37,102 bases of DNA from Actinomycetota bacterium (GTDB lineage Bacteria; Actinomycetota; Coriobacteriia; Anaerosomatales; Anaerosomataceae). The stretch lies in NCBI GenBank assembly GCA_009668945.1, contig SBEH01000013.1, forward strand, positions 1 to 37,102, in the 5' to 3' direction. Made by a program: the position numbers and the translations under genes. The notes under the pieces were generated by a model. That model was not told the origin of the DNA. It did no database searches and saw only the letters and a program-made list of their open reading frames with translations. This document shows positions 1 to 16,580 of this stretch, one piece after another. The first letter of the stretch is position 1. The number at the start of each line of letters is the position of its first letter.

Positions 1-549
1 GTTGTGAAGGCGGAAGCCGACAACTCCACGGAAGATCCTGCGGCGGCGGCCGATGAGCTTGAGGCTGCAGTCGCAGCGGATCCGGATGACATGCAGGCTC
101 GCAGGGACCTCGCCCTCGCACTCGTGGCTGCAGGAGAGTACGACGCAGCGATCGAACAGTACGAGGTGATGGTGAAGAACGATCCCACCGATGGCGCGTT
201 GCTGGCCGAGATGGCAAGTCTCGAGCAACGCGCCGGCAAGGCGCGCGATGCCGCGTTGCATTTGGAGGCGGCGATCAAGGAGGAGCCGGCGGAGCCCGCA
301 TACTACCTCAGTCTTGCGCCGATACGTGTATCATTGGGTGATTGGGCAGCAGCTATCGAGGTGTGGACCGAGTACCTGGAGGTCGGCAAGCCAGACGCCG
401 TTCGCCAGGCGGAGATTCACGCCGCGATGGCCTCTGCCTATGACGGCATGAAGGACTATGCGAACGCGCAGGCGGAGCTGGAGCAGGCGATATCACTTGA
501 TCCGGACAACGCGGACTACACGGTCCGACTCGAGGGTTATGCGAACTGA
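1..549 (+). CDS. TPR-repeat protein, 5' end probably cut by the window
   Basis: The frame is open to the first base. A GTG at 4-6 could start it, but no upstream sequence is available to judge, so I treat the gene as 5'-partial. The visible 181 residues are almost entirely tetratricopeptide repeats: four to five helix pairs with the usual small/aromatic pattern (for example LALALVAAGEYDAAIEQYE and ASAYDGMKDYANAQAELEQA). TPRs are protein-docking scaffolds. The stop lies 50 bases before the giant cytochrome gene on the same strand, so the two may be co-transcribed. TPR proteins are common partners in cytochrome c maturation and in assembly of secreted electron-transfer proteins, but no specific role can be read here. 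No signal peptide or membrane segment is seen in the visible part, though one may lie upstream of the window. Confidence 0.8.
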   Translation, partial: VVKAEADNSTEDPAAAADELEAAVAADPDDMQARRDLALALVAAGEYDAAIEQYEVMVKNDPTDGALLAEMASLEQRAGKARDAALHLEAAIKEEPAEPAYYLSLAPIRVSLGDWAAAIEVWTEYLEVGKPDAVRQAEIHAAMASAYDGMKDYANAQAELEQAISLDPDNADYTVRLEGYAN

Positions 550-583: not shown

Positions 584-603
584 CCACGGGTGATCACCCG
601 TGG
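584..603. promoter_or_regulatory. Perfect 20-bp palindrome across the start of the cytochrome gene
   Basis: Bases 584-593 (CCACGGGTGA) are the exact reverse complement of 594-603. The palindrome is centred on TGATCA and covers the proposed GTG start at 600-602. In DNA it could be a dimeric repressor or activator operator. In RNA it can fold as a 7-bp stem with a TGATCA loop that would hide the start codon. No T-tract follows, so it is not a typical terminator. The binding factor is unknown. Confidence 0.45.
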
Positions 604-3600
604 TAGCCGCCGCCCGCATCGTGAAGAGCTGGTGGCGGAAGCACCCCGTGCTCGGATGGGGTGCTATCGGCGTTCTGGCGGCGGCACTGGTGGTCGGCGC
701 GTTTGTGTTGCCGGCGGGGGCGGCCACCACGTGGCGGCTCACTCCGAGCGGCGAGTATCTCGCCAACGCTAACTGGACCTGGGTTCCGGCAGGCTCTCAG
801 GCCACCGCGTGGGACTCCAACGATGGTGATACGACGCGTGCCTATACGGCGACCGCAAATTCGTGGCAGTACATGAGCATCGACGACGTTTCGGCCGCCC
901 AGAACCCGGGTGCAATCAACAGCGTGACTGTCTACTACCGGGTGAAGAAGAGCGCAGCCGGTGATAGTTCCACAGTCAGAGCGCGCATTCGGGTCAGCGG
1001 CGTGACCGTAGCCACCAATGCACTTCACGCCGTAACCACCGACTACAACACGCTGTATTCGCTCACCGACACAGCGCGGGCCTGGACGTGGGCGGATGTC
1101 AACAACCTCGATGTGGGAATCCAGATGGGCACCGGGACGACCGGTACGATCTCGGTTACCGAGATGTACGTAGTGGTCGACTACACCCCAGCCGTCACGT
1201 CGACGATCACAGTCACGGATGGCGCAGTCGCGGTGTCGAATGCCTTCGTTGCACGGTCTCAAACCGTCGCCGCTGATGCCTTTCGGCTGCAGCGTACTGC
1301 CGGAGCCAATTCGTATGTGTGGGCGTTCATCGTGGAGAACGCGGGCACGGGTGCTCCCGCATCCACGGTCTCCGCGGTTGACATCTACGCTGACGCCAAC
1401 GGAAACGGCATCTTCGACGCGGCTACGGACACCAAACTCAATACAGCCTCGGGTGTCTTCAGCGGAACCACCGCCTCGGTCGTTCTGACCACACCGCTGT
1501 TGGTGGATGCAACCGTTCGTACCTATTTCGTTGTCTACACGATTTCGGCCACTGCGACGGATGGGGTCACGGCGACAGCGCGAGTGTCGGATATGACCTC
1601 GAACGCAGTGACGCATGCAGGACTCCCGGCGGCCACTGGAGGCACGTTCACGGTGGACGTGAACAACCCGGCTGCTGTGATCACGTCGCCGGCAATCAAC
1701 TACCAATACACCACCGCGAGCCCCGGAGTGATCAGCGGCACAGCTTCGGACTCGGTGCCCGGCTCTCTGAGTTCCGTCGGCGTTTCAATCCAAAGGTCGG
1801 GTGACAACCTGTACTGGAACGGCACCTCCGGCGTCTGGGGGGCTGCTCAGGTGTTCAACGCCGCCACAACCAGCAACGGCTGGGCGAACTGGAGCTACAG
1901 CTGGGTGTTCAACCCGCTGACGCAAACGGGGACACCAACGTATACGATCGTTGCTCGAGCCACGGATGCGGTCGCGCACACGGGAGACTCCACCTCGGTC
2001 ACCGGGGTCACGATCAACAATGGTGTTGCTGGGACCCTCACCGTCACCCAGGGCGCCGACGCCGGCCGTCCGACCGTCAAGGTCTTCTCCGCCCGTTCGA
2101 CCGACAAGGTCGTAGATGAACTATCGCTCGCTGCCGCCACTGGAACCATGACGCTCACGCAGATCGTCGTGCGGGGCCTTGACACCGTGGCCGGCAACCT
2201 CACCACCGACGTCACAGGCGTCAGGCTCTTCAGAGACAACGGCGGCACGGTCGGGCAGTGGGACGGGACCGACACGCAGCTCGGCACCACGCAGACCTTC
2301 ACAGGCGGTCTCGCGACCTTCTCCGGGCTCTCGCTTGCGATACCGGCAGGTACGACCGAGAAGGTCTGGGTCGTGTACACGGTAGGCGCGAGCGCGGTCG
2401 ACGGCGATATCGTCGGCTCGCAGGTCAACGTAGGGGACGTGACCGCCACCGGAGGCACCGTCACCCAGGCAGCCAACATAGTCTCGGCCGGAACCCCGGC
2501 GGGTCAGACCATCCAGATAGATGCGGTCGCACCGACCGCCGACACATCGGACCCGCTCAACAATGCGGTGCTGACAGGCGCGAGCAAGACGATCTCGGGC
2601 ACCGCCTCAGACGGGACGGGCTCGGGCGTCGGTTCTGTACAGGTCCAGATCGCCCGCTCTACCGGCGGCTACTGGACCGGTACCGATTGGACTGGGACAT
2701 CGGCCACGTGGCTCACCGTCACGGGCACGGCGAGCTGGACCTACGTGTGGACGCTCGACGCAGGCCAGAACAACGGGCCCGCCACCTACACCATCACCGC
2801 GCGTGCCACCGACAATGTCGGTCTTGTGGGCACCGACGCCACGCCGGTCACCGGCGTCAAGGTCGACAACGTCGCGCCGACCGTCTCCTCGGCCTCGGCG
2901 AAAAGCGCCACCACGGTGGACATCGTCTTCTCCGAGGCGATTGCTGCGGGGTCGGTGCCGTCCAACGGGGCGGGCTTCACGATCGCCGGGCTCACCGTCT
3001 CGGCCGCGACCCTCCAGTCGGCCAACACCGTGCGTCTAACGACCTCGTCGCAGACCCCCAGTGCCTCCTACCCCGTCTCGGTCGCCGCCTCGACGGTCAC
3101 CGACATCGCAGGCAACGGGAACGCAGCGGGAAGCGCTGCCTTCACCGGATACGTGGTCGACACTCAGGCTCCGACAGTACCGACCGGCCTTACGGCCACG
3201 GCCGGCGGCGCCTCGCCGACGATCGCGAGCCTGTCTTGGACGGCCTCCACCGATAACGTAGGTGTCACCGGCTACCGCATCTACAGAGCGGTGTCGGCCA
3301 CCGGAACCTTCACGAGTATCGGGACGTCGGCATCCACGTCATTCAACGACACCAACGGAGTCCCGGGGCAAGACTACTGGTACAAGGTCAGCGCGTACGA
3401 CGCCGCAGGGAACGAGTCCGGTCTGTCGGCCTCCGCCGGACCGGTCGTCTCGACCTGGACGCTGCTGCCGCACGCGGTCTACTCGAGTGCCACGACGTAC
3501 TGTGGGTTGTGCCATGAATCGCACCAGGCGGTCACCGCGCGCTACCTCATACGCGATGCGGGCGCGGGTAGGAGCGAGGTTGCGGTCTGCTACGTCTGCC

Positions 3601-6600
3601 ATGACGGGTCCGGAGCGATCGCCAACGTCAAGACCGGCACCTACAACTCCTTTGCGCTTGCGAGCGGGCACTACCTCGAGGACGTCGATACGGCGACCGA
3701 CCTCACCAACACCTGCTCGGCGTGTCACAACCCGCACAAGGTGCCCACCCTTGGCAACCCGGTCCCGCAGTCGGTGATCAACGGAGCCACAGTCACCGGG
3801 GCGAACAACACGTGGTGCTTCGCCTGCCACAACACGACCAGCGACTGGTACACGAAGACGACTCCGGCGAAGACCTACCCGTCCACGGCCACGCGTGATG
3901 CCTCGGGCTACACGTTCCTCGGCACGTTCCCCGGTCCGACCGCGTACGAGGCGACCACGAACCCGCACTACACCGTCACGGCCTCGTCGCACTACTTCCG
4001 CGGCTCCACCACAGCGGACTGGGTGGTCCGAGAGCAGAGGGACTGCCTGTACTGTCACGAGGCGCACAGGGGTACTCAGACCGGGACGCAAGACGGACTC
4101 ATCGCGCAGTTCAGCGCATCGAACTTCACGTTGTGCTTCCAGTGCCATGGCACCGCCAGCGGCGGGCAGCTCACGCCGTCGCAGCTCGCGGCGGCCGGCG
4201 CCGTGAACATCCAGCAGTTCTATCCGACGACGGCAGGTGGCACCGCGACGCAGAGCGGGACCTTCCCGGCCGGCACCCGGTACGGTCATCGCGTGAGGAG
4301 CAATGTAGCGGGAGCGACGCTGTCCCAGGACGAGGCGGTGCCGTGCTACGACTGCCACAACCCGCACGGGTCCTCGGCGGCACGCTACGGCCTGCTGGTG
4401 ATCGCCGCAACCGGCTATTCCGGCGGAGCAACGACCTACACGGTCGTTGGCGACGGGGCGGGTGAGCTTGACGTCTCAACAGCTGCCGGCGTCCGCAACT
4501 TCTGCTTCACCTGCCACACCACGTCGGACACCTCGGCGGGCTGGAACGGCTCGGTGATGGCCCTCGTGCCGGCGAACGCGGCTTTCGAGGGGATCGCTCG
4601 GAGCAATGCCAGTTACCGTCTGCGGCTGCCCGCGGCCAACGGTCACGCTGCGGCCGATACGCAGTCCTGCAACGTGTGCCATGGATCGAGCTACGCCGCG
4701 GGCGGCAGCAACGTACACAACCCGACGGGCGGGGTCTCCAACGGCGGCCAGACCTGCTACGCGTGCCACCCCGCCTACAAGGACCCGATGGAGCGCACGG
4801 GCGCCACGCGCACCACCTACTACCACCACGTGCTCGGCACAGCGGTGATGTCGGGCGACATCGCGCCTAACACGGGCGCCTACCCGACCTCTTCGACAGA
4901 CGTGTACTGCGTGAGCTGCCACACCGACCACAACTACTTCAACGCGAACAAGGGCGCGAACCTGAGAAGCAGCATCACCGCCGCCGGCTCGAGCGTCATG
5001 AGCACCGACTACAACGCGACCACGAATGCGGGCATCTGCACCTCGTGTCACGCGGCCTCGCTCACAAAGGAGGTCACCGGCCTGCAGAAGAACGACACCT
5101 CCACGGCCACGCCCAAGATCGTCACGGGCGACTACAGCTCTTCCGCCCACTACTACGGGGTGTCCTCGAGTTTCATCAGCTCGCCGTTCAGCGCCAACTG
5201 CTCCAAGTGCCACAACGACGAGCAGTCCAAGGAATACCAGACGTCGACCTACAAGTTCGGCACCCACTACTCGAGCGCACGTCGCGTCATCTCGGCGTTC
5301 GGTGCCGCGGTCACGGACCCAATCGGCGAGGACCGCTGCTACAAGTGCCACTCGGGAGCAACCGCCGGTACCGACTACTACGGGACCGAGCCGATGAGCA
5401 TCGGCGCCCACTACACGCAGGCGCAGTTCTCGCTTTCAAGCCGCCACCCGGTCGCCTCGGGCGACCAGGGTACCGGCGACGCGGTGGAGTGCGAGAGCTG
5501 CCACAACCCGCACGTGGTCGACCGGGCGTCCTCCGGCTCGCCGGTGACCGACCCGGACAACGGCTACAACACGATCGCGTACGCCACCGACGCGAACATA
5601 GCGACGTTCTGCCTGAAGTGCCACGACGGAGCGCTGCCGGCCTACACGGTGAACGGCGCGACCTACATCCCGTACACGGTGACCCAGGCGAACACCGCTC
5701 TGAACAACAAGTCCACGTACGGCGCGCGCGGCCACTGGAACCTCGCCGGCTCCACAGTCGGAGGCGCGAATGCCGCAGCGGTCACCGCGCCGGTCTCCTG
5801 CGCCGAGTGCCACGACAACCACGGCTCCGCAGCCCCCAAGCTTCTCGGTGCCTTCGACACCACCGACAAGCGCAACGAGATCAATGCGGACGCCATCACC
5901 GCCAACAACAACACAGTGTGCTTCGCCTGCCACGAGTATGCGGACAGCGCCTGGTCCACGTTCACCCTTGACGCAACGGGCTACCCGGTCACCGGTACAT
6001 GGCCGGGCAAGACCGTCTACGAGGACGCGACCGCGAGCGGTACCAAGGAGAAGGGAATCCACCGCGCCGACGGCAACGCTGCTGACGGCAGCGTCGTCTG
6101 GCCAGGTTCGGCCTATGCCGACGGCATGTGCTTGAACTGCCACGACGTCCACGGCACCGCCAACACGTACGACGAGCTCCGCGGTACCTACAACAGTACC
6201 GATTTCACGCTGTGCTTCACCTGCCACGACGCTGCTCCCGGATTCGACATCAAGCAGTACTACCCGACCTCCGCCGGCGGTAGCGCGACGCAGAACGCGT
6301 TCTCCGTCCCGCTGACCAGCCGCTACGGCCACCGCACCAAGAGCGTGGGTACCCTTCCCGCAGGTTCGGCACTGCCCTGCTACTACTGTCACCAACCGCA
6401 CGGGTCAGGCGGGTACTTCGGCCTGATGGTTCGAAGCGAGATCGTGGCCGGCACGCCGCTCATCCTTGGGGACGGCTCGCTAGAGATTGGGATCGACCAG
6501 GTCACTGGCGAGTCGGCGAACCTCGTCCGCAGGTTCTGCTTCGCCTGCCACACCACCTCTGGCATCACGAACGGTAACGCGGACACGACGTCGTACGCCT

Positions 6601-8555
6601 GGAACGGCGGTGCAAACGCGACCGAATCCAACAACTACACGGCAACGACAAACGGTACGATCGCCGGTATCAGCCGCACCAGCAACGCCGGCAACGCCGT
6701 CCTCAAGCTCCCGCGCGTCTCCGGTCACTACCGCGACGACACGCAGAGCTGCTACCAATGCCACGGCAACAGCTACGCTGCCGGCGGCAGCAACGTGCAC
6801 AACCCGACCGGAGGGGTTTCTGCAGGCGGAGTCTCGTGCTACGCGTGCCACTCCGCCTACAAGGACCCGATGGAGCGCACCGGCGCCACGCGGACCACGT
6901 ATTACCACCACGTGCTCGGCACAGCGGTGATGTCGGGCGACATCGCGCCTAACACGGGCGCCTACCCGACCTCTTCGACAGACGTGTACTGCGTGAGCTG
7001 CCACACCGACCACAACTACTTCAACGCGAACAAGGGCGCGAACCTGAGAAGCAGCATCACCGCCGCCGGCTCGAGCGTCATGAGCACCGACTTCAGCTCA
7101 TCGTCGAACAACGGTGTGTGTACCTCATGCCACGTCGCAGCACTTACGAAGGAAAGCGGTTTCCAGAAGAACGACGGCACGACCACCACGCCGACTATCG
7201 CAACGGCCGACTACGGCGCATCGGCACACGACTACTACGCGACCTCGACCTTCGGCACGGGCAACACCTTCTACGCAAACTGCTCCAAGTGCCACAACGA
7301 CGAGCAGACGAAGGAGTACCAGACCTCGACGAACAAGTTCGGTACTCACTACTCGAGTACGCGACGCGTCCTCGCGGCAATGGGCATCACGGTGGCCGAT
7401 CCGCTGGCCGAGGAAAGCGAGTGCTACAAGTGCCACTCGCTGACGGCGAGCGGCGCAAAGACGGCCACAAACAACAACGATTGGTACGGCACGATCACGA
7501 ACATGACCGCGGCCTCACAGGCCGTCCAGGGGCTGATGGGGTCCACCTACAGGCACAACGTCGCCGGGTACATAGGCGTGCACCGGCCGTCGCCAACGGA
7601 CGAGACGCGTACATACATCTCTGCCAACAAGCACGTGGAGTGCGCCGACTGCCACGATGTGCACGCGGCCACCACGACGCGGCACACTGCTATGGCTGGT
7701 TACCAGTCGGCGACAGGCTACGCCGTCTCCGGTGCGCTTGCCAGCGTGCCCGGCGCAAGTGCGACGTTCTCCGCCACCAACTGGACAGCGCCCACGGCCT
7801 ATGCCTCGGTGTCGGCCGCCACCTATGAGTACCAGATCTGCTTCAAGTGCCACTCCGGCTACAACACAAACGTGACCACATGGGGCGGCACCGGAGCGGC
7901 GGCCTGGACAGATCAGGGCCTGGAGTTCTCGACAGCCAACAATGCGTACCACCCGGTGGTGGCTGCAGTTCCTGTCGGGAGGCAGCTCACTGCCGGGGAG
8001 ATGCGTGCGGCCGGAACGGCGGGTGGCCAGGCCGTCGGTGGGTGGGCTCCCGGAGACACGATGTACTGTTCCGACTGCCACGCGCAGAGCAGCACGGGCT
8101 CCCTCGGTCCGCACGGCAGTGCTGTGAAATGGATGTTGAAGGGTCCGAACCAGGCCTGGCCCTACACCACCGCGGCGGCCAACGGGACGAGCACCGGCAC
8201 GTATCGGACGCTTGACGCCTGGACTACCAACGACGGTACGGCGGACGGCCTGTTCTGCTACAACTGCCACAACAGGGGCAGCGGCACCGGCAATCATTTC
8301 GCCTGCACCTACTCTCACGGCACCTATGCGTGCATGTCCTGTCATATACGGGTGCCACATGGTGGGAAGGTCTCGGGTCTGCTCTGTGCGGTCGACCTTG
8401 CCGGCACGAGCAGCGGGAATATGCCCGCTCGTTACGCCGCGGACGGGAACGGGACCATGTTGAGCAACCATATGCGGCGGGTCTCGAAGCCATGGGGAGA
8501 GGCCAACTGTGTTGACAACTGCAACCACAACGGCACTGGAGCAGAGACCTGGTAG
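600..8555 (+). CDS. Giant secreted multiheme c-type cytochrome (33 CxxCH) with Ig-like and FN3 domains
   Basis: This 2651-residue protein probably carries electrons outside the membrane, for extracellular electron transfer or as a surface conduit. Residues about 19-41 form a membrane/signal segment. Residues about 180-960 are beta-sandwich modules: two alternating pairs of a repeat and an Ig-like domain, a Big_5-like segment (about 760-855) and an FN3 domain (about 857-955). From residue 968 to 2582 there are 33 CxxCH motifs, many followed by NPH or HG as in paired-CXXCH domains; abundant extra histidines could give bis-His ligation. No LPXTG or C-terminal membrane helix is seen, so N-terminal anchoring or release are both possible. 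The C-terminus has a degenerate CTYSH and an odd CVDNCNH. An in-frame TGA at 591-593 limits the start to GTG 600 or GTG 621; neither has a clear ribosome binding site. System II maturation genes lie 1.9 kb downstream. Confidence 0.93.
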   Translation: MVAAARIVKSWWRKHPVLGWGAIGVLAAALVVGAFVLPAGAATTWRLTPSGEYLANANWTWVPAGSQATAWDSNDGDTTRAYTATANSWQYMSIDDVSAAQNPGAINSVTVYYRVKKSAAGDSSTVRARIRVSGVTVATNALHAVTTDYNTLYSLTDTARAWTWADVNNLDVGIQMGTGTTGTISVTEMYVVVDYTPAVTSTITVTDGAVAVSNAFVARSQTVAADAFRLQRTAGANSYVWAFIVENAGTGAPASTVSAVDIYADANGNGIFDAATDTKLNTASGVFSGTTASVVLTTPLLVDATVRTYFVVYTISATATDGVTATARVSDMTSNAVTHAGLPAATGGTFTVDVNNPAAVITSPAINYQYTTASPGVISGTASDSVPGSLSSVGVSIQRSGDNLYWNGTSGVWGAAQVFNAATTSNGWANWSYSWVFNPLTQTGTPTYTIVARATDAVAHTGDSTSVTGVTINNGVAGTLTVTQGADAGRPTVKVFSARSTDKVVDELSLAAATGTMTLTQIVVRGLDTVAGNLTTDVTGVRLFRDNGGTVGQWDGTDTQLGTTQTFTGGLATFSGLSLAIPAGTTEKVWVVYTVGASAVDGDIVGSQVNVGDVTATGGTVTQAANIVSAGTPAGQTIQIDAVAPTADTSDPLNNAVLTGASKTISGTASDGTGSGVGSVQVQIARSTGGYWTGTDWTGTSATWLTVTGTASWTYVWTLDAGQNNGPATYTITARATDNVGLVGTDATPVTGVKVDNVAPTVSSASAKSATTVDIVFSEAIAAGSVPSNGAGFTIAGLTVSAATLQSANTVRLTTSSQTPSASYPVSVAASTVTDIAGNGNAAGSAAFTGYVVDTQAPTVPTGLTATAGGASPTIASLSWTASTDNVGVTGYRIYRAVSATGTFTSIGTSASTSFNDTNGVPGQDYWYKVSAYDAAGNESGLSASAGPVVSTWTLLPHAVYSSATTYCGLCHESHQAVTARYLIRDAGAGRSEVAVCYVCHDGSGAIANVKTGTYNSFALASGHYLEDVDTATDLTNTCSACHNPHKVPTLGNPVPQSVINGATVTGANNTWCFACHNTTSDWYTKTTPAKTYPSTATRDASGYTFLGTFPGPTAYEATTNPHYTVTASSHYFRGSTTADWVVREQRDCLYCHEAHRGTQTGTQDGLIAQFSASNFTLCFQCHGTASGGQLTPSQLAAAGAVNIQQFYPTTAGGTATQSGTFPAGTRYGHRVRSNVAGATLSQDEAVPCYDCHNPHGSSAARYGLLVIAATGYSGGATTYTVVGDGAGELDVSTAAGVRNFCFTCHTTSDTSAGWNGSVMALVPANAAFEGIARSNASYRLRLPAANGHAAADTQSCNVCHGSSYAAGGSNVHNPTGGVSNGGQTCYACHPAYKDPMERTGATRTTYYHHVLGTAVMSGDIAPNTGAYPTSSTDVYCVSCHTDHNYFNANKGANLRSSITAAGSSVMSTDYNATTNAGICTSCHAASLTKEVTGLQKNDTSTATPKIVTGDYSSSAHYYGVSSSFISSPFSANCSKCHNDEQSKEYQTSTYKFGTHYSSARRVISAFGAAVTDPIGEDRCYKCHSGATAGTDYYGTEPMSIGAHYTQAQFSLSSRHPVASGDQGTGDAVECESCHNPHVVDRASSGSPVTDPDNGYNTIAYATDANIATFCLKCHDGALPAYTVNGATYIPYTVTQANTALNNKSTYGARGHWNLAGSTVGGANAAAVTAPVSCAECHDNHGSAAPKLLGAFDTTDKRNEINADAITANNNTVCFACHEYADSAWSTFTLDATGYPVTGTWPGKTVYEDATASGTKEKGIHRADGNAADGSVVWPGSAYADGMCLNCHDVHGTANTYDELRGTYNSTDFTLCFTCHDAAPGFDIKQYYPTSAGGSATQNAFSVPLTSRYGHRTKSVGTLPAGSALPCYYCHQPHGSGGYFGLMVRSEIVAGTPLILGDGSLEIGIDQVTGESANLVRRFCFACHTTSGITNGNADTTSYAWNGGANATESNNYTATTNGTIAGISRTSNAGNAVLKLPRVSGHYRDDTQSCYQCHGNSYAAGGSNVHNPTGGVSAGGVSCYACHSAYKDPMERTGATRTTYYHHVLGTAVMSGDIAPNTGAYPTSSTDVYCVSCHTDHNYFNANKGANLRSSITAAGSSVMSTDFSSSSNNGVCTSCHVAALTKESGFQKNDGTTTTPTIATADYGASAHDYYATSTFGTGNTFYANCSKCHNDEQTKEYQTSTNKFGTHYSSTRRVLAAMGITVADPLAEESECYKCHSLTASGAKTATNNNDWYGTITNMTAASQAVQGLMGSTYRHNVAGYIGVHRPSPTDETRTYISANKHVECADCHDVHAATTTRHTAMAGYQSATGYAVSGALASVPGASATFSATNWTAPTAYASVSAATYEYQICFKCHSGYNTNVTTWGGTGAAAWTDQGLEFSTANNAYHPVVAAVPVGRQLTAGEMRAAGTAGGQAVGGWAPGDTMYCSDCHAQSSTGSLGPHGSAVKWMLKGPNQAWPYTTAAANGTSTGTYRTLDAWTTNDGTADGLFCYNCHNRGSGTGNHFACTYSHGTYACMSCHIRVPHGGKVSGLLCAVDLAGTSSGNMPARYAADGNGTMLSNHMRRVSKPWGEANCVDNCNHNGTGAETW
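3501..5485 (+). repeat. Cytochrome haem unit 1 (haems 1-14)
   Basis: The first 14 CxxCH motifs (residues 968-1584) match motifs 15-28 one for one in order and in the residues after each motif: haem 6/20 with the xQ-YPT-AGG segment after it, haem 7/21 followed by xPHGS, haem 9/23 followed by the SNVHNPTGGVS stretch, haem 10/24 followed by YKDPMERTG, and haem 13/27 as CSKCHNDEQ. Boundaries are set at the first Cys of haem 1 and just before haem 15. Confidence 0.8.
4821..5010 (+). repeat. 190-bp perfect direct repeat, copy 1
   Basis: All 190 bases are identical to 6903-7092, an offset of 2082 bp, which is a whole number of codons. The match breaks at 4820 (c versus t) and at 5011 (a versus t). 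Flanking sequence remains alike but diverged, so the exact core is younger than the unit duplication or has been homogenised by gene conversion. Confidence 0.95.
5490..7635 (+). repeat. Cytochrome haem unit 2 (haems 15-28)
   Basis: This is the second copy of the 14-haem unit, beginning with CESCH at residue 1631 and ending after CYKCH at residue 2275. The match to unit 1 is strongest from haem 19 to haem 28 and becomes nearly exact across haems 24-25. Haems 29-33 (7641-8345) begin a third, truncated round (CADCHDV, then CFKCHSG) before the C-terminal segment. Confidence 0.8.
6903..7092 (+). repeat. 190-bp perfect direct repeat, copy 2
   Basis: This is the second copy of 4821-5010. It encodes the haem 25 region (CVSCHTDHNYF) and the alanine/serine stretch after it, identical to the haem 11 region in the first unit. 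Confidence 0.95.
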
Positions 8556-8577: not shown

Positions 8578-9114
8578 ATGCGCCGTGTTCTTGTGGTTGC
8601 GATTGTGTTCCTTGGCTGCGGTGTCGCAGCGGCGCTATCGATGTGCGGATCCGGCGGAGGGTCGTCATCCGCGGACGAGGCAGCTATCCGTGCGCTGATC
8701 GTGCAGTACAACGAGACGCTGATCAGCGGGTATCGGACCATGGACATGAATCCGATGCAGGAAGTCGCTACCCTTGAGCAGGCGGAGGATGAGTATATCT
8801 ACATGTCCTCACTTGCTGAAGGCGGCGTGCGCTTGGACGCGACCTTGGTGGACTTGGCGTTCGTGCGCTTCAGCATCGAGACGATGAGCGCTCAAGTAGA
8901 GACTCGGGAGACGTGGGACTACCGGCACTATGGTCGTGAGGACGGCAAGCTGCTCCTCATGCAAGAGGGCCTCATTTATGACCTCGCCTACGATCTCGAG
9001 AAGCAGGCCGACGGACGATGGCTGGTCTCGGATGTCCGCGCAATCAGCGCAACCTCGACGGTGGAGCCGACGAGGATCGCCACGCCGACGCCCATTCCGT
9101 CTGAGAATCCCTAG
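8578..9114 (+). CDS. Small secreted or lipid-anchored protein of unknown function
   Basis: The 178-residue product starts MRRVLVVAIVFLGCGVAAAL, a clear signal-type hydrophobic segment followed by SMCGSGGG. The cysteine could be a lipidation site, but Met at -1 is unusual for a lipobox, so plain secretion is also possible. The mature part (about residues 30-155) is mixed alpha/beta with a final strand ending in DGRWLVSDVRAIS, which resembles NTF2-like or IMS-type folds; this is a weak impression. The tail is Thr/Pro-rich. I chose ATG 8578 because it begins the signal sequence. GTG 8557 is in frame, and an ATG at 8509 would overlap the cytochrome gene by 47 bases. It lies 22 bases after the cytochrome stop and 6 bases before the radical SAM gene, so it probably belongs to the same operon. 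Confidence 0.75.
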   Translation: MRRVLVVAIVFLGCGVAAALSMCGSGGGSSSADEAAIRALIVQYNETLISGYRTMDMNPMQEVATLEQAEDEYIYMSSLAEGGVRLDATLVDLAFVRFSIETMSAQVETRETWDYRHYGREDGKLLLMQEGLIYDLAYDLEKQADGRWLVSDVRAISATSTVEPTRIATPTPIPSENP

Positions 9115-9120
9115 GGTCGC

Positions 9121-10461
9121 GTGATGCGCGTCCTCCTCATTGCTCCGCCGATGCCCTTCTCGGGGCGCGTTCCAATCGCTCCTCCGATCCTCGAGTACCT
9201 GGGCGCGCTCACGGTGCGCGCCATGCCGGATGCTGAACTGCGGCTCCTCGACGCCAACGTCACGTCCTTTGATCTCGCTTCCGCCGAAGCCGACCTGGTC
9301 GGCATCTCCGCGATGACCGCGACCGCCACGTGGGTGTACGCGACCGCGAATGCCCTGCGTGCTCGCGGGCTGCGAGTGGTCCTCGGCGGCATCCATCCCA
9401 CGGCGCTGCCGCGTGAGGCGTCGCAGCACGCCGATGCGGTGGTGGTGGGAGAGGCCGAGTCGGTGTGGGCACAGGTGCTAGCCGATGCAGCCGCCGGCAC
9501 GCTCGAGCGCTTCTACCACGGCGAGCGGCTCCCGCTCGACGGCCTGCCGCAGCCCCTGTTCGGCGCGCTCGACGGGCCGTACCGGTTCCGCGCCATCATC
9601 ACTACGCGCGGGTGCCCGTATCACTGCACGTTCTGCTCGGTGCGGCGGTTCTTCGGTGACACCGTGCGATTTCGGCCGATCGACGAGGTCGTGGCCGAGA
9701 TCGCGAAGGTGCCGGGCTCGCTCTACTTCAACGCCGACGACAACATCTGGGGCGCGGACACCGACCGCTCGATCGCGCTTTTCAACCGGCTTGCGAGCGA
9801 GGCCAAGAAGCCCTGGTACGGCTTCGGTGATCTCAAGTCCGTACAGGGCGAGCGGGGAGACGAGCTGATCCGCGCCGCCAAGCGCAGCGGGCTCTTCTCG
9901 GTCTGGGCGGGCTGGGAGGCGGACTCGCAGCAGCTGGGCGCGTACCACGCGAGCGCAAAGCAGGGGCGCGACCGTGAGGAGGCTGTCAAGCGCATCAAGG
10001 CCGTGGGAGTCGACGTCACGCTGTTCGTGGTGCTCGGCGGCCGGAACGAGTCGTTCGAAGACTTCGAGCGTGCGGTGGAGCTGGCCGACCGCCTCGATGT
10101 GGGCGTTCATCCGGCGCTGCTCACGCCGTTTCCCGGGACCGAGCTCTGGGCCGAGTACGAGCCGTTCCTGCTTCCCGGACTTGGCTGGGACCGGTTCACA
10201 GGCGTGAGCGCGGTGTTCACCCATCCCGACCCGCGCATGACGCCAGAGGCGCGCGAGCGCGCGTACTACACCACCTCGCTCGACTTGCTCTCGCTGCCGC
10301 GTATCCTCGGCCACGCGGCGCGCATTCCCGCGGCGGGCTTTCCGACCACGCACTTCCTCTCGATAATGAAAGCGCTCCCGGTCCGGCGCGCCATGCGCAA
10401 GGCCTACGCCGAGTGGGAGAGCGCACGTGTAGGCGCGGCGGAAGGGGCGGGCGGCGAGTGA
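9121..10461 (+). CDS. B12-binding-domain radical SAM protein
   Basis: The protein has the two-part layout of cobalamin-dependent radical SAM enzymes. Residues about 1-130 form a Rossmann-like B12-binding domain with GGIHPTALP and the VVVGEAE signature. A radical SAM domain begins near residue 155 with the cluster motif CPYHCTFC (Cys165, 169, 172), which binds the 4Fe-4S cluster that cleaves S-adenosylmethionine. The classic DxHxxG cobalamin ligand is not evident, as in many members of this class. Length (446) is typical. The substrate cannot be inferred. GTG 9121 is followed directly by ATG 9124, and either may be used. The stop overlaps the resB start in GTGA, so the enzyme is translationally coupled to cytochrome maturation genes, which hints at a haem- or envelope-related substrate. 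Confidence 0.88.
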   Translation: MMRVLLIAPPMPFSGRVPIAPPILEYLGALTVRAMPDAELRLLDANVTSFDLASAEADLVGISAMTATATWVYATANALRARGLRVVLGGIHPTALPREASQHADAVVVGEAESVWAQVLADAAAGTLERFYHGERLPLDGLPQPLFGALDGPYRFRAIITTRGCPYHCTFCSVRRFFGDTVRFRPIDEVVAEIAKVPGSLYFNADDNIWGADTDRSIALFNRLASEAKKPWYGFGDLKSVQGERGDELIRAAKRSGLFSVWAGWEADSQQLGAYHASAKQGRDREEAVKRIKAVGVDVTLFVVLGGRNESFEDFERAVELADRLDVGVHPALLTPFPGTELWAEYEPFLLPGLGWDRFTGVSAVFTHPDPRMTPEARERAYYTTSLDLLSLPRILGHAARIPAAGFPTTHFLSIMKALPVRRAMRKAYAEWESARVGAAEGAGGE

Positions 10462-11756
10462 AGGCGATGTGGCGTCTCCTGCGTTCGCGGAAGCTGGCCG
10501 TCTGGACGATCATCGCGTTCGTCGTCTATGCCGCGGTGGCCACGCTGATCTCCGACGGCGACTGGTCCGTGCCCTACAGGAGCCCGATCTTCCTCGCGAT
10601 TGCCGCGCTTCTCGGTCTCAGCACCTTCGCGTGTGCGTGGGAGCGGACGCGAGCGGCGCTCAAGCAGGCACCTATGCGCGAGCCCTCGGAGGCGACCGTC
10701 GCCCGGCTCCGCGAGCGGCCGGGGATCGTGCTCGATGTGACCGGCGCGACCGGTCCGCTAGCACAGGCCGAGCGCGCCTTACGCGGTCTGCATATGCGCG
10801 TCGCTCGCTACGGCAACCTGGTCGAGGCGCGCGCCGGTCTCGCCGGGGCGTTCGGCAGCCCGGTCTTCCACTGGGCGCTCGCTCTTCTGCTGGTTGTAGT
10901 CGCACTCGGCCAGCTCACACGTGCCGAAGGGATCATGGGAATCGTTGCGGGGTACTCGAAGGCCGACGCTGCCGAGTCGTACGGCTCGCTCGAGACAGGG
11001 CCGTTGGCCGGCGAACTCAGCGGACGCATCATCGCCGTGCCGAGCATCGAGAGCAGCTACACCGCGAACGGTGTGGATCAAGGCGTTACGCCATTCGTGG
11101 AGATTCAGACTCCCGCAGGCGAGGTGCTCGCCAGCGGATACGCCTATGCAAACCATCCGATTCGCTACCGTTCGATGCTTGTGCACATGAACACCGACGG
11201 CCTCGGCGCGGTGGTTCGCGTGAGTGGCGAGGGCGGCGTCTTCACCGAGCAGGTGACGCTGGACTACAACGACGACCGCACGGCCGTGGAGCCGGTGGAC
11301 TTCGTGCTGGAGGGTGGGGCTGGCGCGCTTGCGACCGTGGTGTTCGAGCCCGCTCCGGGCAGTACGCCCGGAGCGCCGACGGTGAGGATCCGTGCCGCCG
11401 AAGGAGAAGTCCCGGGGGGTGCCGAGTACGCTGTCGACCAGGTGCTCCCCGAGGGCGGGTCGATCGAGATCCCGGGCGGCTTCACCCTGACCATCGTCAA
11501 GCTCACGAAGTACGCGCGGCTCTCTGTTGTCAACGACTGGTCGGTCTACTGGATCTACGCGCTGTTCGCACTGGCCGCGATCGGGCTGGTACCGGCTGTC
11601 TTCGCGCCGCTCAGGGGCGTCAGGGTCTTGCTCGTTCCCGATGCCGAAGGAACTCGCTTGCACGTTGCGGTACGGCACGGCCGAGGCGACCCGCACTTCC
11701 CTGGTAGAGTAGAGACCGCGCTCCGGGCCGGGCTTGGACTCGAGGAGGACTCGTGA
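10458..11756 (+). CDS. resB: ResB-like cytochrome c biogenesis protein (System II)
   Basis: This 432-residue membrane protein matches the ResB/Ccs1 layout. Two transmembrane helices lie near the N-terminus (LAVWTIIAFVVYAAVATLIS, then SPIFLAIAALLGLSTFACAW). A third starts with FHWALALLLVVVALGQL. A large extracytoplasmic beta-rich domain of about 220 residues follows, with a last helix in the WSVYWIYALFALAAIGLVPA region. With CcsA it forms the System II synthase that moves haem across the membrane and attaches it to CxxCH motifs. I chose GTG 10458 because it overlaps the previous stop as GTGA and sits behind a G-rich stretch; ATG 10467 is the alternative. The 3' end overlaps ccsA by 4 bases. 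This pair would mature the 33-haem protein upstream. Confidence 0.87.
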   Translation: MKAMWRLLRSRKLAVWTIIAFVVYAAVATLISDGDWSVPYRSPIFLAIAALLGLSTFACAWERTRAALKQAPMREPSEATVARLRERPGIVLDVTGATGPLAQAERALRGLHMRVARYGNLVEARAGLAGAFGSPVFHWALALLLVVVALGQLTRAEGIMGIVAGYSKADAAESYGSLETGPLAGELSGRIIAVPSIESSYTANGVDQGVTPFVEIQTPAGEVLASGYAYANHPIRYRSMLVHMNTDGLGAVVRVSGEGGVFTEQVTLDYNDDRTAVEPVDFVLEGGAGALATVVFEPAPGSTPGAPTVRIRAAEGEVPGGAEYAVDQVLPEGGSIEIPGGFTLTIVKLTKYARLSVVNDWSVYWIYALFALAAIGLVPAVFAPLRGVRVLLVPDAEGTRLHVAVRHGRGDPHFPGRVETALRAGLGLEEDS

Positions 11757-12592
11757 GCAACACGACCGAGATCATCATCATGTGGGCGGCCGTCAGCGGG
11801 TACGCGCTCTCGGCGGCGCTGTTCATCGTCGGCTTCGTCTTCAAGAAGGAGAAGTTGACGTTCGCAGGCCTCGCGGTTGCCGCCGCCGGCCTCGTGCCGC
11901 ACGTGATTGCGATGGGCGGGCGTTGGGTGCGCCTCGGACACGGGCCCTACCTGGGCTTCTACGAGGTCATCTCGAGCTACGCGTTCTTCGGTGTCGTGAT
12001 CTTCGCCCTGCTCGTGTGGCGCTTCAAGCAGCTGAGACCGCTCGGGATCGTGCTCATGCCGATCGCGTTCCTGGTGCTGGGCGGAGCGATGCTTGCGCCG
12101 AAGAGCGAACTTGAGGTCACCGCGAAGCTCGCGAGCTACTGGTTGGCCGTCCACGTGACGTTTGCGAAGCTCAGCTACGGATCGTTCATCACATCGTTCG
12201 GGCTGGCTGTCATCCATCTGGCACGCTCGCTGAAGCCGCAGGGGGCCATTGCCACGAGGCTCACCAAGCTTCCGCCGCAGGATGTCGTCGACGACCTGAC
12301 GTTCAAGTTCATCGCGGCCGGCTTCATATTCCTCGGCATCATGATCGCCGCCGGGGCAGTGTGGGCGAACGAAGCATGGGGACGCTACTGGGGCTGGGAC
12401 CCGATCGAAACGTGGTCACTCATCTCCTGGCTGTGCTACGCGGTGATTCTGCACCTGCGTCTCACGATGGTCTGGAAGGGCGACAAGTTCGCATGGGCGG
12501 CCGTCGCCGGACTGCCCATCAACCTCTTCGCCGTCGTGGGCGTGGCGATCGTCTACAACTCCATCCACGGCGCATACATGACCGGGTACTAG
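11753..12592 (+). CDS. ccsA: Cytochrome c biogenesis protein CcsA (haem handling)
   Basis: The 279-residue polytopic membrane protein has the WWD haem-binding loop diagnostic of the family (W209 GRYWGWDPIETW 221), flanked by membrane helices carrying conserved histidines (His134, His234, His272). CcsA presents haem to apocytochrome on the outer face of the membrane and works with ResB. GTG 11753 overlaps the resB stop in GTGA and is preceded by a strong ribosome binding site, CGAGGAGG, at 11741-11748. About seven to eight helices can be counted. The length is usual for the short bacterial form. It closes the electron-transfer block. Confidence 0.95.
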   Translation: MSNTTEIIIMWAAVSGYALSAALFIVGFVFKKEKLTFAGLAVAAAGLVPHVIAMGGRWVRLGHGPYLGFYEVISSYAFFGVVIFALLVWRFKQLRPLGIVLMPIAFLVLGGAMLAPKSELEVTAKLASYWLAVHVTFAKLSYGSFITSFGLAVIHLARSLKPQGAIATRLTKLPPQDVVDDLTFKFIAAGFIFLGIMIAAGAVWANEAWGRYWGWDPIETWSLISWLCYAVILHLRLTMVWKGDKFAWAAVAGLPINLFAVVGVAIVYNSIHGAYMTGY

Positions 12593-14810: not shown

Positions 14811-15722
14811 ATGTTCGACGCACGCTACTCGATCCGCTCGCACACAGCCGGCTCGCTTTCGGCCGCCGACGTCGGCGCGGATGTAACGCTCGCCGGCTGG
14901 GTGGCCAAGCGCCGGGACCACGGCGGCCTGATCTTCGTCGATCTGCGCGACCGAACCGGGATCGTGCAGTGCACGTTCGACCCCGAGGCTTCAGGGGCTG
15001 CGTTCGCGCTCGCCGAGACGGTGCGTCCCGAGTGGGTCGTGAAGCTCTCGGGCACCGTGCGCCGCCGCCCGGAGGGGACTGAGAACCCGAACATGGCGAC
15101 CGGCGAGGTCGAGGTCGTGATCTCCTCGGCGGAGGTGCTGAACCGCAGCGAGACGCCGCCGTTCGAGGTCGAGGCGGGCATCGACACCGACGAAGTGACC
15201 CGCATGCGCTACCGCTACATCGACATCCGCCGCCCCGAGGTCTTCGGCGCGCTCGTGCTGCGCGACCGCGTGGTACAGCGCTTCCGCCGCTCGCTCGAGA
15301 GCCGCGGCTTCATGGAGGTGGAGACGCCGATCCTCGGCAAGTCCACGCCGGAGGGCGCACGCGACTTCATCGTGCCGAGCCGTATGAACCCGGGCAAGTT
15401 CTACGCACTCCCACAGTCGCCGCAGCTGTTCAAGCAGCTCTTCATGGTCGCCGGCATCGAGCGCTACTACCAGATTGCACGCTGCTTCCGTGACGAGGAC
15501 CTCCGAGCCGACCGCCAGCCCGAGTTCACGCAGGTGGACATCGAGATGTCGTTCGCCACCGAAGACGACATCCTCACCATGATGGAAGACGTCATGCGCG
15601 AGGTCATGAAGGAGGCGGATGTCGACCTGCCGGTGCCGCTTCGCCGTATAACCTACGCCGAGGCGATGGACCGCTTCGGCTCCGACCGGCCGGACACGCG
15701 CCTCGGCATGGAGCTGCATTGA
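14811..15722 (+). CDS. aspS: Aspartate--tRNA ligase, N-terminal part up to an in-frame TGA
   Basis: These 303 residues are the N-terminal half of bacterial AspRS: an OB-fold anticodon-binding domain (about 15-130), motif 1 (about 150-175) and motif 2 (FRDEDLRADRQPEFTQVD, about 222-239). Translation then meets TGA at 15720-15722, codon 304, just inside the GAD insertion domain. The same frame continues without another stop to 16580. The total of 590 codons, counting TGA as one and the final stop, equals a normal full-length AspRS. ATG 14811 has the ribosome binding site TAGGAGGAG. AspRS is normally essential, so a truncated product would not support growth unless read-through occurs, another copy exists, or the stop is a sequence error. 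Confidence 0.9.
   Translation: MFDARYSIRSHTAGSLSAADVGADVTLAGWVAKRRDHGGLIFVDLRDRTGIVQCTFDPEASGAAFALAETVRPEWVVKLSGTVRRRPEGTENPNMATGEVEVVISSAEVLNRSETPPFEVEAGIDTDEVTRMRYRYIDIRRPEVFGALVLRDRVVQRFRRSLESRGFMEVETPILGKSTPEGARDFIVPSRMNPGKFYALPQSPQLFKQLFMVAGIERYYQIARCFRDEDLRADRQPEFTQVDIEMSFATEDDILTMMEDVMREVMKEADVDLPVPLRRITYAEAMDRFGSDRPDTRLGMELH
15720..15722 (+). other. In-frame TGA inside aspS
   Basis: The local sequence reads GAG CTG CAT TGA CTG CGC GAG, then continues in the same frame into VSEFKVFA. Related AspRS proteins usually have Asp here (ELxDL). CAT GAC CTG becomes CAT TGA CTG by lengthening T to TT and shortening CC to C four bases later, two opposite homopolymer changes that keep the frame. 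TGA ends many other genes in this window, so a genome-wide TGA reassignment is unlikely. Confidence 0.9.
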
Positions 15723-15740
15723 CTGCGCGAGACGTTCGCC

Positions 15741-16580
15741 GTGAGCGAATTCAAGGTCTTCGCCAGCGCGCTCGCCGCCGACGGCGCGGTCAAGGGCATC
15801 AACGCCAAAGGCGCTGGCGACTGGAGCCGGAGCCGCATCGACGCGCTCAACCAGGTCGCCCTCGACGCTGGCGCGAAGGGCCTCGCGTGGATCGCGTTTC
15901 CCACTGATGGTGAGGTCCGTTCGCCCGTGGCCAAGTTCCTCTCCGAGGAGGAGGTGGCCGGCCTGAAGCGGACCCTCGCCATCGAGCCCGGCGATCTCGC
16001 ACTCATGATCGCCGACGAACATGACCTCGCGAACGAGGTCCTCGGCGTGCTCCGCTTGCACATGGCCGCTGAACTCGAGCTCCCGCGGGAGGGCTACGAC
16101 GCGCTGTGGGTCGTGGACTTCCCGATGTTCAAGTACGACGCCGAGGAAGACCGCTTCGCCGCCAACCACCACCCGTTCACCATGCCGAAGGCCGAGGACG
16201 TCGACAAGATCGAGACTGAGCCGCTCGCGGTGGGCTCGTACAGCTACGACCTGGTGATGAACGGCTACGAGATCGGCGGAGGTACGCTGCGCATCCACAA
16301 CGCCGACCTGCAGATGCGCGTCCTGAAGCGTCTCGGCCACTCGGAGGAAGAGGCGCGCACGCAGTTCGGCTTCCTGCTCGAAGCACTCTCGTTCGGAGCA
16401 CCGCCGCACTGCGGCATCGCGCTCGGTCTCGACCGGCTCGTAATGCTGCTCTCCGGCTCGGCATCGATCCGTGACGTGATCGCGTTCCCGAAGACGTCGT
16501 CCGGTGCCGATCCGCTCACCGGCGCGCCGGACAGCGTCACCGCGCGGCAGCTCAAGGAAGTGCACCTGAAGCAGGACTAG
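15741..16580 (+). CDS. aspS: Aspartate--tRNA ligase, C-terminal part after the in-frame TGA
   Basis: This is the same frame as the aspS N-terminal part and supplies what it lacks: the GAD insertion domain (from [10 protein letters not shown]) and the C-terminal catalytic core with [11 protein letters not shown], the [14 protein letters not shown] stretch, motif 3 ([12 protein letters not shown]) and the final [15 protein letters not shown] region. GTG 15741 is the first possible start after the TGA, but no ribosome binding site precedes it, and the product would lack motifs 1 and 2. It is best read as one gene, 14811-16580. Coding continues unbroken through 15723-15740 (LRETFA), which argues for a recent or artefactual stop rather than two genes. 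Confidence 0.88.

What the first reader, a model, noticed from the sequence alone, without database searches (positions are those of the whole stretch)
600..8555. A 33-haem cytochrome built from two 14-haem units plus a remnant
Aligning the residues after each CxxCH shows that haems 1-14 and 15-28 match one for one, and haems 29-33 begin a third round. A modular 14-haem repeat in a single chain would stack many haems in a fixed pattern, as in conductive cytochrome filaments. Such large proteins are known in this part of Actinomycetota, but I know of no description of a 14-haem repeat architecture.
Basis: partly seen in the sequence, partly recalled or inferred. Interest (0 to 1): 0.85.

Follow-up and report, generated by a model that had tools for sequence, protein, structure and literature searches.

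The report
Giant cytochrome built of 14-haem repeats
A Gram-positive-type bacterium carries one giant secreted protein that should hold 33 haems, built as two copies of a 14-haem block plus a separate 5-haem end piece, and its relatives carry one to five copies of that block, so evolution seems to lengthen a possible molecular electric wire by whole segments.

Summary
The observation largely holds: the 2651-aa protein at 600-8555 has 33 CxxCH motifs, and haems 1-14 and 15-28 are a tandem repeat (46% identity; linker similarity peaks only at an offset of 14 haems). The "remnant of a third unit" is wrong. Haems 29-33 match a 5-haem C-terminal cap found in all 14 single-unit homologues used as reference and, partly diverged, in the 2- to 5-unit ones; they do not match haems 1-5. 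Homologues in the same order (Anaerosomatales, Actinomycetota) have 1 to 5 units plus cap: 19, 33, 48, 61 and 75 haems, i.e. 19+14(n-1) with one extra haem at n=3. Every unit keeps 14 haem motifs and 14 distal histidines, so the unit haems are probably all bis-His. Unit starts differ between first and later units, unit ends between internal and cap-adjacent units, as expected if neighbours dock. Best explanation: a secreted single-chain haem wire for extracellular electron transfer through a Gram-positive wall, its reach set by unit number. Stacking and function are inferred; AlphaFold models were too poor to test them. Tandem haem-module cytochromes are known (GSU1996); I found no description of this module or series.

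The parts
600..8555 (+). 33-haem cytochrome, 2651 aa, start GTG, stop TAG
   Evidence: 33 CxxCH in one frame
600..725 (+). Sec-type signal / hydrophobic N-terminus (aa 1-42)
   Evidence: read from the sequence; N-terminus homologous in G016
726..3464 (+). haem-free stalk, Ig/fn3-like (fn3 at aa 861-939); aa ~477-959 occurs in two or more copies in 4- and 5-unit relatives
   Evidence: Pfam fn3; blastp among relatives
3465..5453 (+). 14-haem unit 1 (haems 1-14): first-unit type at haems 1-5, closer to later-unit type at haems 6-8
   Evidence: unit14 profile E=2e-196
5454..7604 (+). 14-haem unit 2 (haems 15-28), later-unit type
   Evidence: unit14 profile E=6e-145 over haems 17-28; A1 profile over the whole unit
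7605..8552 (+). 5-haem C-terminal cap (haems 29-33)
   Evidence: cap5 profile E=4e-80; conserved cap columns
4821..5010 (+). 190-base stretch of unit 1 identical to 6903-7092 in unit 2
6903..7092 (+). matching 190-base stretch of unit 2
1..549 (+). TPR protein, cut by the contig end; relatives of it lie upstream of 4- and 5-unit cytochromes
   Evidence: Pfam TPR; tblastn
8578..9114 (+). probable lipoprotein, weak NTF2-like match; homologues near the cytochrome in most relatives
10413..11756 (+). ResB-like protein, system II cytochrome c maturation
   Evidence: Pfam ResB; synteny
11753..12592 (+). CcsA-like cytochrome c assembly protein, system II
   Evidence: Pfam Cytochrom_C_asm; synteny

Best explanation
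It is a secreted c-type cytochrome made of a haem-free Ig-like stalk, a head-to-tail array of 14-haem units (n=2 here) and a 5-haem C-terminal cap. Each unit should hold 14 bis-His haems. The most likely working: the array forms one continuous haem chain that carries electrons from the membrane side through the thick Gram-positive wall to an acceptor outside (for example Fe(III) minerals or a partner cell), and the number of units sets its reach. Shown from sequence: motif number, repeat, cap, 14+14 conserved ligand columns, unit series in relatives, junction-specific unit ends, nearby maturation genes. Inferred: haem stacking across unit junctions, orientation, location in the wall, electron acceptor.
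For: Repeat at offset 14 only. Haem totals 19, 33, 48, 61, 75 with n=1 to 5 units plus cap. All 19 haem columns align in 14 of 14 single-unit proteins. 14 distal His columns conserved in 26-27 of 27 units, all present in both window units. Units tile with gaps as short as 3 nt. Unit starts sort by first/later (1 change on the tree, shuffled mean 12.6, none of 2000 shuffles as low); unit ends by last/internal (3 changes, shuffled mean 12.5, none of 2000; multi-unit proteins alone 2 of 2000, P=0.001). ResB and CcsA genes nearby. Cultured Anaerosomatales have a Gram-positive wall and 17-18 multihaem cytochromes, and one isolate depends on Fe(III) (PMC9686372).
Against: No confident structure (pLDDT 47 and 42), so linear stacking is unproven. 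No wall-binding or membrane anchor was recognised apart from the N-terminal hydrophobic segment. No expression or redox data. One cultured member of the order with a similar set of cytochromes does not reduce Fe(III) (PMC9686372). Many single-unit relatives with 19 haems exist, so length is not essential to the basic function.
Confidence: 0.55

Rival explanations
1. It is the subunit of a polymeric cytochrome filament (OmcS/OmcE/OmcZ-like), and the tandem repeat only makes the subunit bigger.
For: Many bis-His haems; pili-like appendages are reported on cultured Anaerosomatales (PMC9686372); a weak match of haems 21-24 (unit 2) to chain 7tfs, which I recall as OmcE (E=0.0006 for the whole sequence, 0.013 for the stretch).
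Against: The 7tfs match is no better than matches to reaction-centre cytochromes and NrfA and falls on other haems with the unit-1 profile. Distinct conserved stalk and cap at the two ends do not suggest open-ended polymerisation. The 14 distal His per unit need no ligand from a neighbouring subunit, though OmcZ also lacks such ligands (PMC9473688).
Confidence: 0.2
2. It is an electron store (haem capacitor) at the cell surface; added units raise capacity, not reach.
For: Haem number scales in steps of 14. Geobacter nanowire-type periplasmic cytochromes have been discussed as aiding survival when acceptors run out (PMC10138318).
Against: Junction-specific unit ends suggest ordered unit-to-unit contact, which mere storage would not need. 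The stalk is also longer in the 4- and 5-unit relatives, which fits reach better.
Confidence: 0.15
3. It is a terminal reductase for a soluble or mineral substrate, with the cap as the reactive end.
For: The cap is conserved across unit numbers. PF22113 (MtrC/MtrF domains II/IV) matches 25 of 27 units.
Against: PF22113 matches several different haem groups of each unit, so it looks generic. All unit haems have a conserved distal His candidate; the cap has 9 well conserved extra His for 5 haems, so no open site is evident.
Confidence: 0.1

Closest known systems
GSU1996 / GSU0592 / GSU2210 of Geobacter sulfurreducens
   Same: Single-chain cytochromes with many haems; GSU1996 is four tandem 3-haem domains with the haems in a line (PMC10138318).
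   Different: Module has 3 haems, periplasmic, one His-Met haem per domain; here the module has 14 haems, 14 distal His columns, a separate cap, a stalk, and a Gram-positive-type host.
OmcS / OmcE / OmcZ filament cytochromes
   Same: Multihaem electron carriers outside the cell.
   Different: Small subunits that polymerise; only one weak match (7tfs), of the size expected from CxxCH motifs.
ANME and Methanoperedens giant cytochromes (up to 86 and 113 haems)
   Same: Very large cytochromes thought to carry electrons across the outer layer (PMC9012536, PMC7327174).
   Different: Archaeal, partly S-layer fusions; no 14-haem tandem unit described in the passages read.

Membership tests
Tandem 3-haem (c7-type) nanowire cytochromes, GSU1996 type | repeat unit of 3 haems | tested here: not met
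   offset 3 mean Z 0.08, offset 14 mean Z 9.6
Tandem 3-haem (c7-type) nanowire cytochromes, GSU1996 type | one His-Met haem per domain | tested here: not met
   14 conserved distal His columns per 14-haem unit; ligands inferred from conservation
Tandem 3-haem (c7-type) nanowire cytochromes, GSU1996 type | linear haem packing | tested here: inconclusive
   models of pLDDT 47 and 42
OmcS/OmcE/OmcZ filament cytochromes | sequence relationship to solved filament proteins | tested here: inconclusive
   one weak match to 7tfs (OmcE, from memory), E=0.0006-0.002, high bias, similar to unrelated cytochromes; no OmcS or OmcZ chain listed
OmcS/OmcE/OmcZ filament cytochromes | polymerises into filaments | not testable with these tools
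   needs microscopy
MtrC/MtrF decahaem cytochromes | pentahaem domain II/IV (PF22113) | tested here: inconclusive
   above cut-off, but matches several different haem groups of each unit
MtrC/MtrF decahaem cytochromes | two pentahaem and two beta domains in alternation | tested here: not met
   one haem-free N-terminal stalk, then 33 haems with linkers of 25-76 residues and no room for a beta domain between
ANME S-layer cytochromes | S-layer domain | tested here: not met
   no S-layer Pfam match

The most novel reading that the evidence does not exclude
A genetically length-set, single-chain haem wire: in-register gain and loss of 14-haem segments, with matched docking ends, tunes how far electrons travel through the cell wall.
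Probability: 0.35. Interest if true: 0.85.

Novelty: new variant of a known kind. Interest (0 to 1): 0.62.

Why it matters
How Gram-positive bacteria pass electrons across a thick wall is an open question. A family whose members differ by whole 14-haem steps offers a natural length series (19 to 75 haems) to test whether reach, capacity or substrate is being selected, and a template for covalent haem wires of defined length.

Tried and rejected
Third-unit remnant: rejected. Smaller internal repeat, such as 2x7 within the unit: no signal at offset 7. Membership in solved filament families by sequence: only a weak, unspecific match. Structure prediction: two AlphaFold jobs, both too poor; a Foldseek search of the first found nothing. 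Recoded TGA as the reason for the broken aspS: rejected, since other genes of the window end with TGA and the second TGA seen is the end of lysS. Literature: nine searches with varied terms found no description of the 14-haem unit or of the 19+14(n-1) series; the library lacks most subscription papers.

Full report
Observation. The frame 600-8555 (+) encodes 2651 aa with 33 CxxCH motifs at aa 968-2578; the only other frame of the window with any has one. Self-comparison of aa 956-1618 and 1619-2335 gives one in-register alignment, 556 bits and 46% identity; out-of-register alignments reach at most 74 bits. To remove the effect of the motif itself I compared only the linkers: mean Z is 9.6 at an offset of 14 haems and below 1 at any other offset. 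Individually, linkers 3-14 match 17-28; linkers 1-2 do not match 15-16. Haems 29-33 match neither 1-5 nor 15-19.

What haems 29-33 are. A search of 99 relatives and a scan of the GTDB genome contigs found the family mainly in the same order; record titles name Anaerosomatales and Coriobacteriia. Fourteen single-unit proteins have 19 haems and all 19 columns align. Profiles made from them split the protein into a 14-haem unit and a 5-haem cap. The window protein is unit + unit + cap, with the cap at E=4e-80. The last five haems are therefore a conserved end piece, not a remnant.

The series. Complete proteins have 19 (n=1), 33 (n=2: window, G054), 48 (n=3: G036, with one extra haem in the first unit), 61 (n=4: G016) and 75 haems (n=5: G010, G052). 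G028 is split over two contigs with 16 and 45 haems, which would add to 61. Tandem members tested peak at offset 14, and those with three or more units also at 28; the units tile closely. Not all relatives fit: some have 17 or 18 haems, some share only part of the unit and lack the cap (G055, L051-L053, L058, L068; G041 ends in a second unit near a contig end), G048 and G047 have other arrangements, and a contig named Geothermocultor repeats at 13. In proteins with n of 3 or more only the first four cap haems align well and the ending differs.

Haem ligands. In 27 aligned units there are exactly 14 conserved histidines outside the CxxCH motifs, each in 26 or 27 of 27, and both window units have all 14. 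That fits bis-His ligation of every haem in the unit, though ligands were not seen directly. The cap has 9 well conserved extra histidines for 5 haems.

How the array evolves. In a tree of units, first and later units separate. In trees of parts, haems 1-5 divide perfectly into first and later units, while haems 9-14 divide mostly by whether the unit is followed by another unit or by the cap (the shuffles treat units as exchangeable, so they are a guide and not an exact probability). I read this as matched docking ends. In the window, unit 1 is first-type at haems 1-5 but nearer the later type at 6-8, and shares 190 identical bases with unit 2 inside otherwise diverged DNA. Recombination or conversion between units in register is the simplest explanation and could also change unit number. 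A caveat: the single-unit protein G009 also falls with later units at haems 6-9, so that part of the split is not absolute.

Surroundings. Upstream is a TPR gene cut by the contig end; its relatives lie upstream of 4- and 5-unit proteins. Downstream are a probable lipoprotein (8578-9114) with homologues beside most relatives, a B12-binding radical SAM gene, ResB and CcsA of system II cytochrome maturation, and then hisS and aspS. Several single-unit homologues also lie near hisS, so the window gene and these probably share a chromosomal position.

Mechanism. A secreted protein with a stalk, an ordered array of 14-haem units and a cap is best read as a single-chain haem wire. With 58 A per 8 haems as in OmcZ (PMC9473688 gives the rise), 19, 33 and 75 haems would span roughly 14, 24 and 54 nm if fully extended, a range that could cross a Gram-positive wall. 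This is arithmetic, not a measurement. Cultured Anaerosomatales have a Gram-positive wall and many multihaem cytochromes, and one depends on Fe(III) (PMC9686372).

Limits. A profile search against solved structures gave only weak matches, among them 7tfs, which I recall as the OmcE filament protein, aligned over its whole length to haems 7-10 of the unit; matches to unrelated multihaem cytochromes score as well, so I do not build on it. The relatives are mostly metagenome assemblies; units within one protein differ enough that assembly collapse is unlikely, but the 190-base identity in the window deserves long reads. Novelty is limited by the literature library: tandem haem modules are known in GSU1996 (PMC10138318) and larger haem numbers in archaea (PMC7327174, PMC9012536).

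Noticed in passing
window 14811-16580: aspS, apparently the only copy in the genome, has an in-frame TGA at 15720-15722 where five relatives have D, C or E; TGA is a normal stop elsewhere in the window. Sequencing error, nonsense mutation or a split enzyme.
   Followed up: partly
window 9121-10461: B12-binding radical SAM gene between the cytochrome and ResB; a weak relative follows the 28-haem cytochrome in two Geomonas genomes (L050, L055).
   Followed up: partly
L042 4982-13726: Relative in a contig named Geothermocultor whose haem pattern repeats at 13, not 14; frame open at the contig end.
   Followed up: partly
L060, L061, L062, L065, L066, L069: Proteins of 1067-1108 aa with 42 CxxCH each in several phyla (Zixiibacteriota, Eisenbacteria and others), about 25 residues per haem.
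   Followed up: no
window 726-3464 and the N-termini in G010, G016, G028: The haem-free stalk is also modular: a block of about 400-480 aa occurs two or more times in the 4- and 5-unit relatives.
   Followed up: partly
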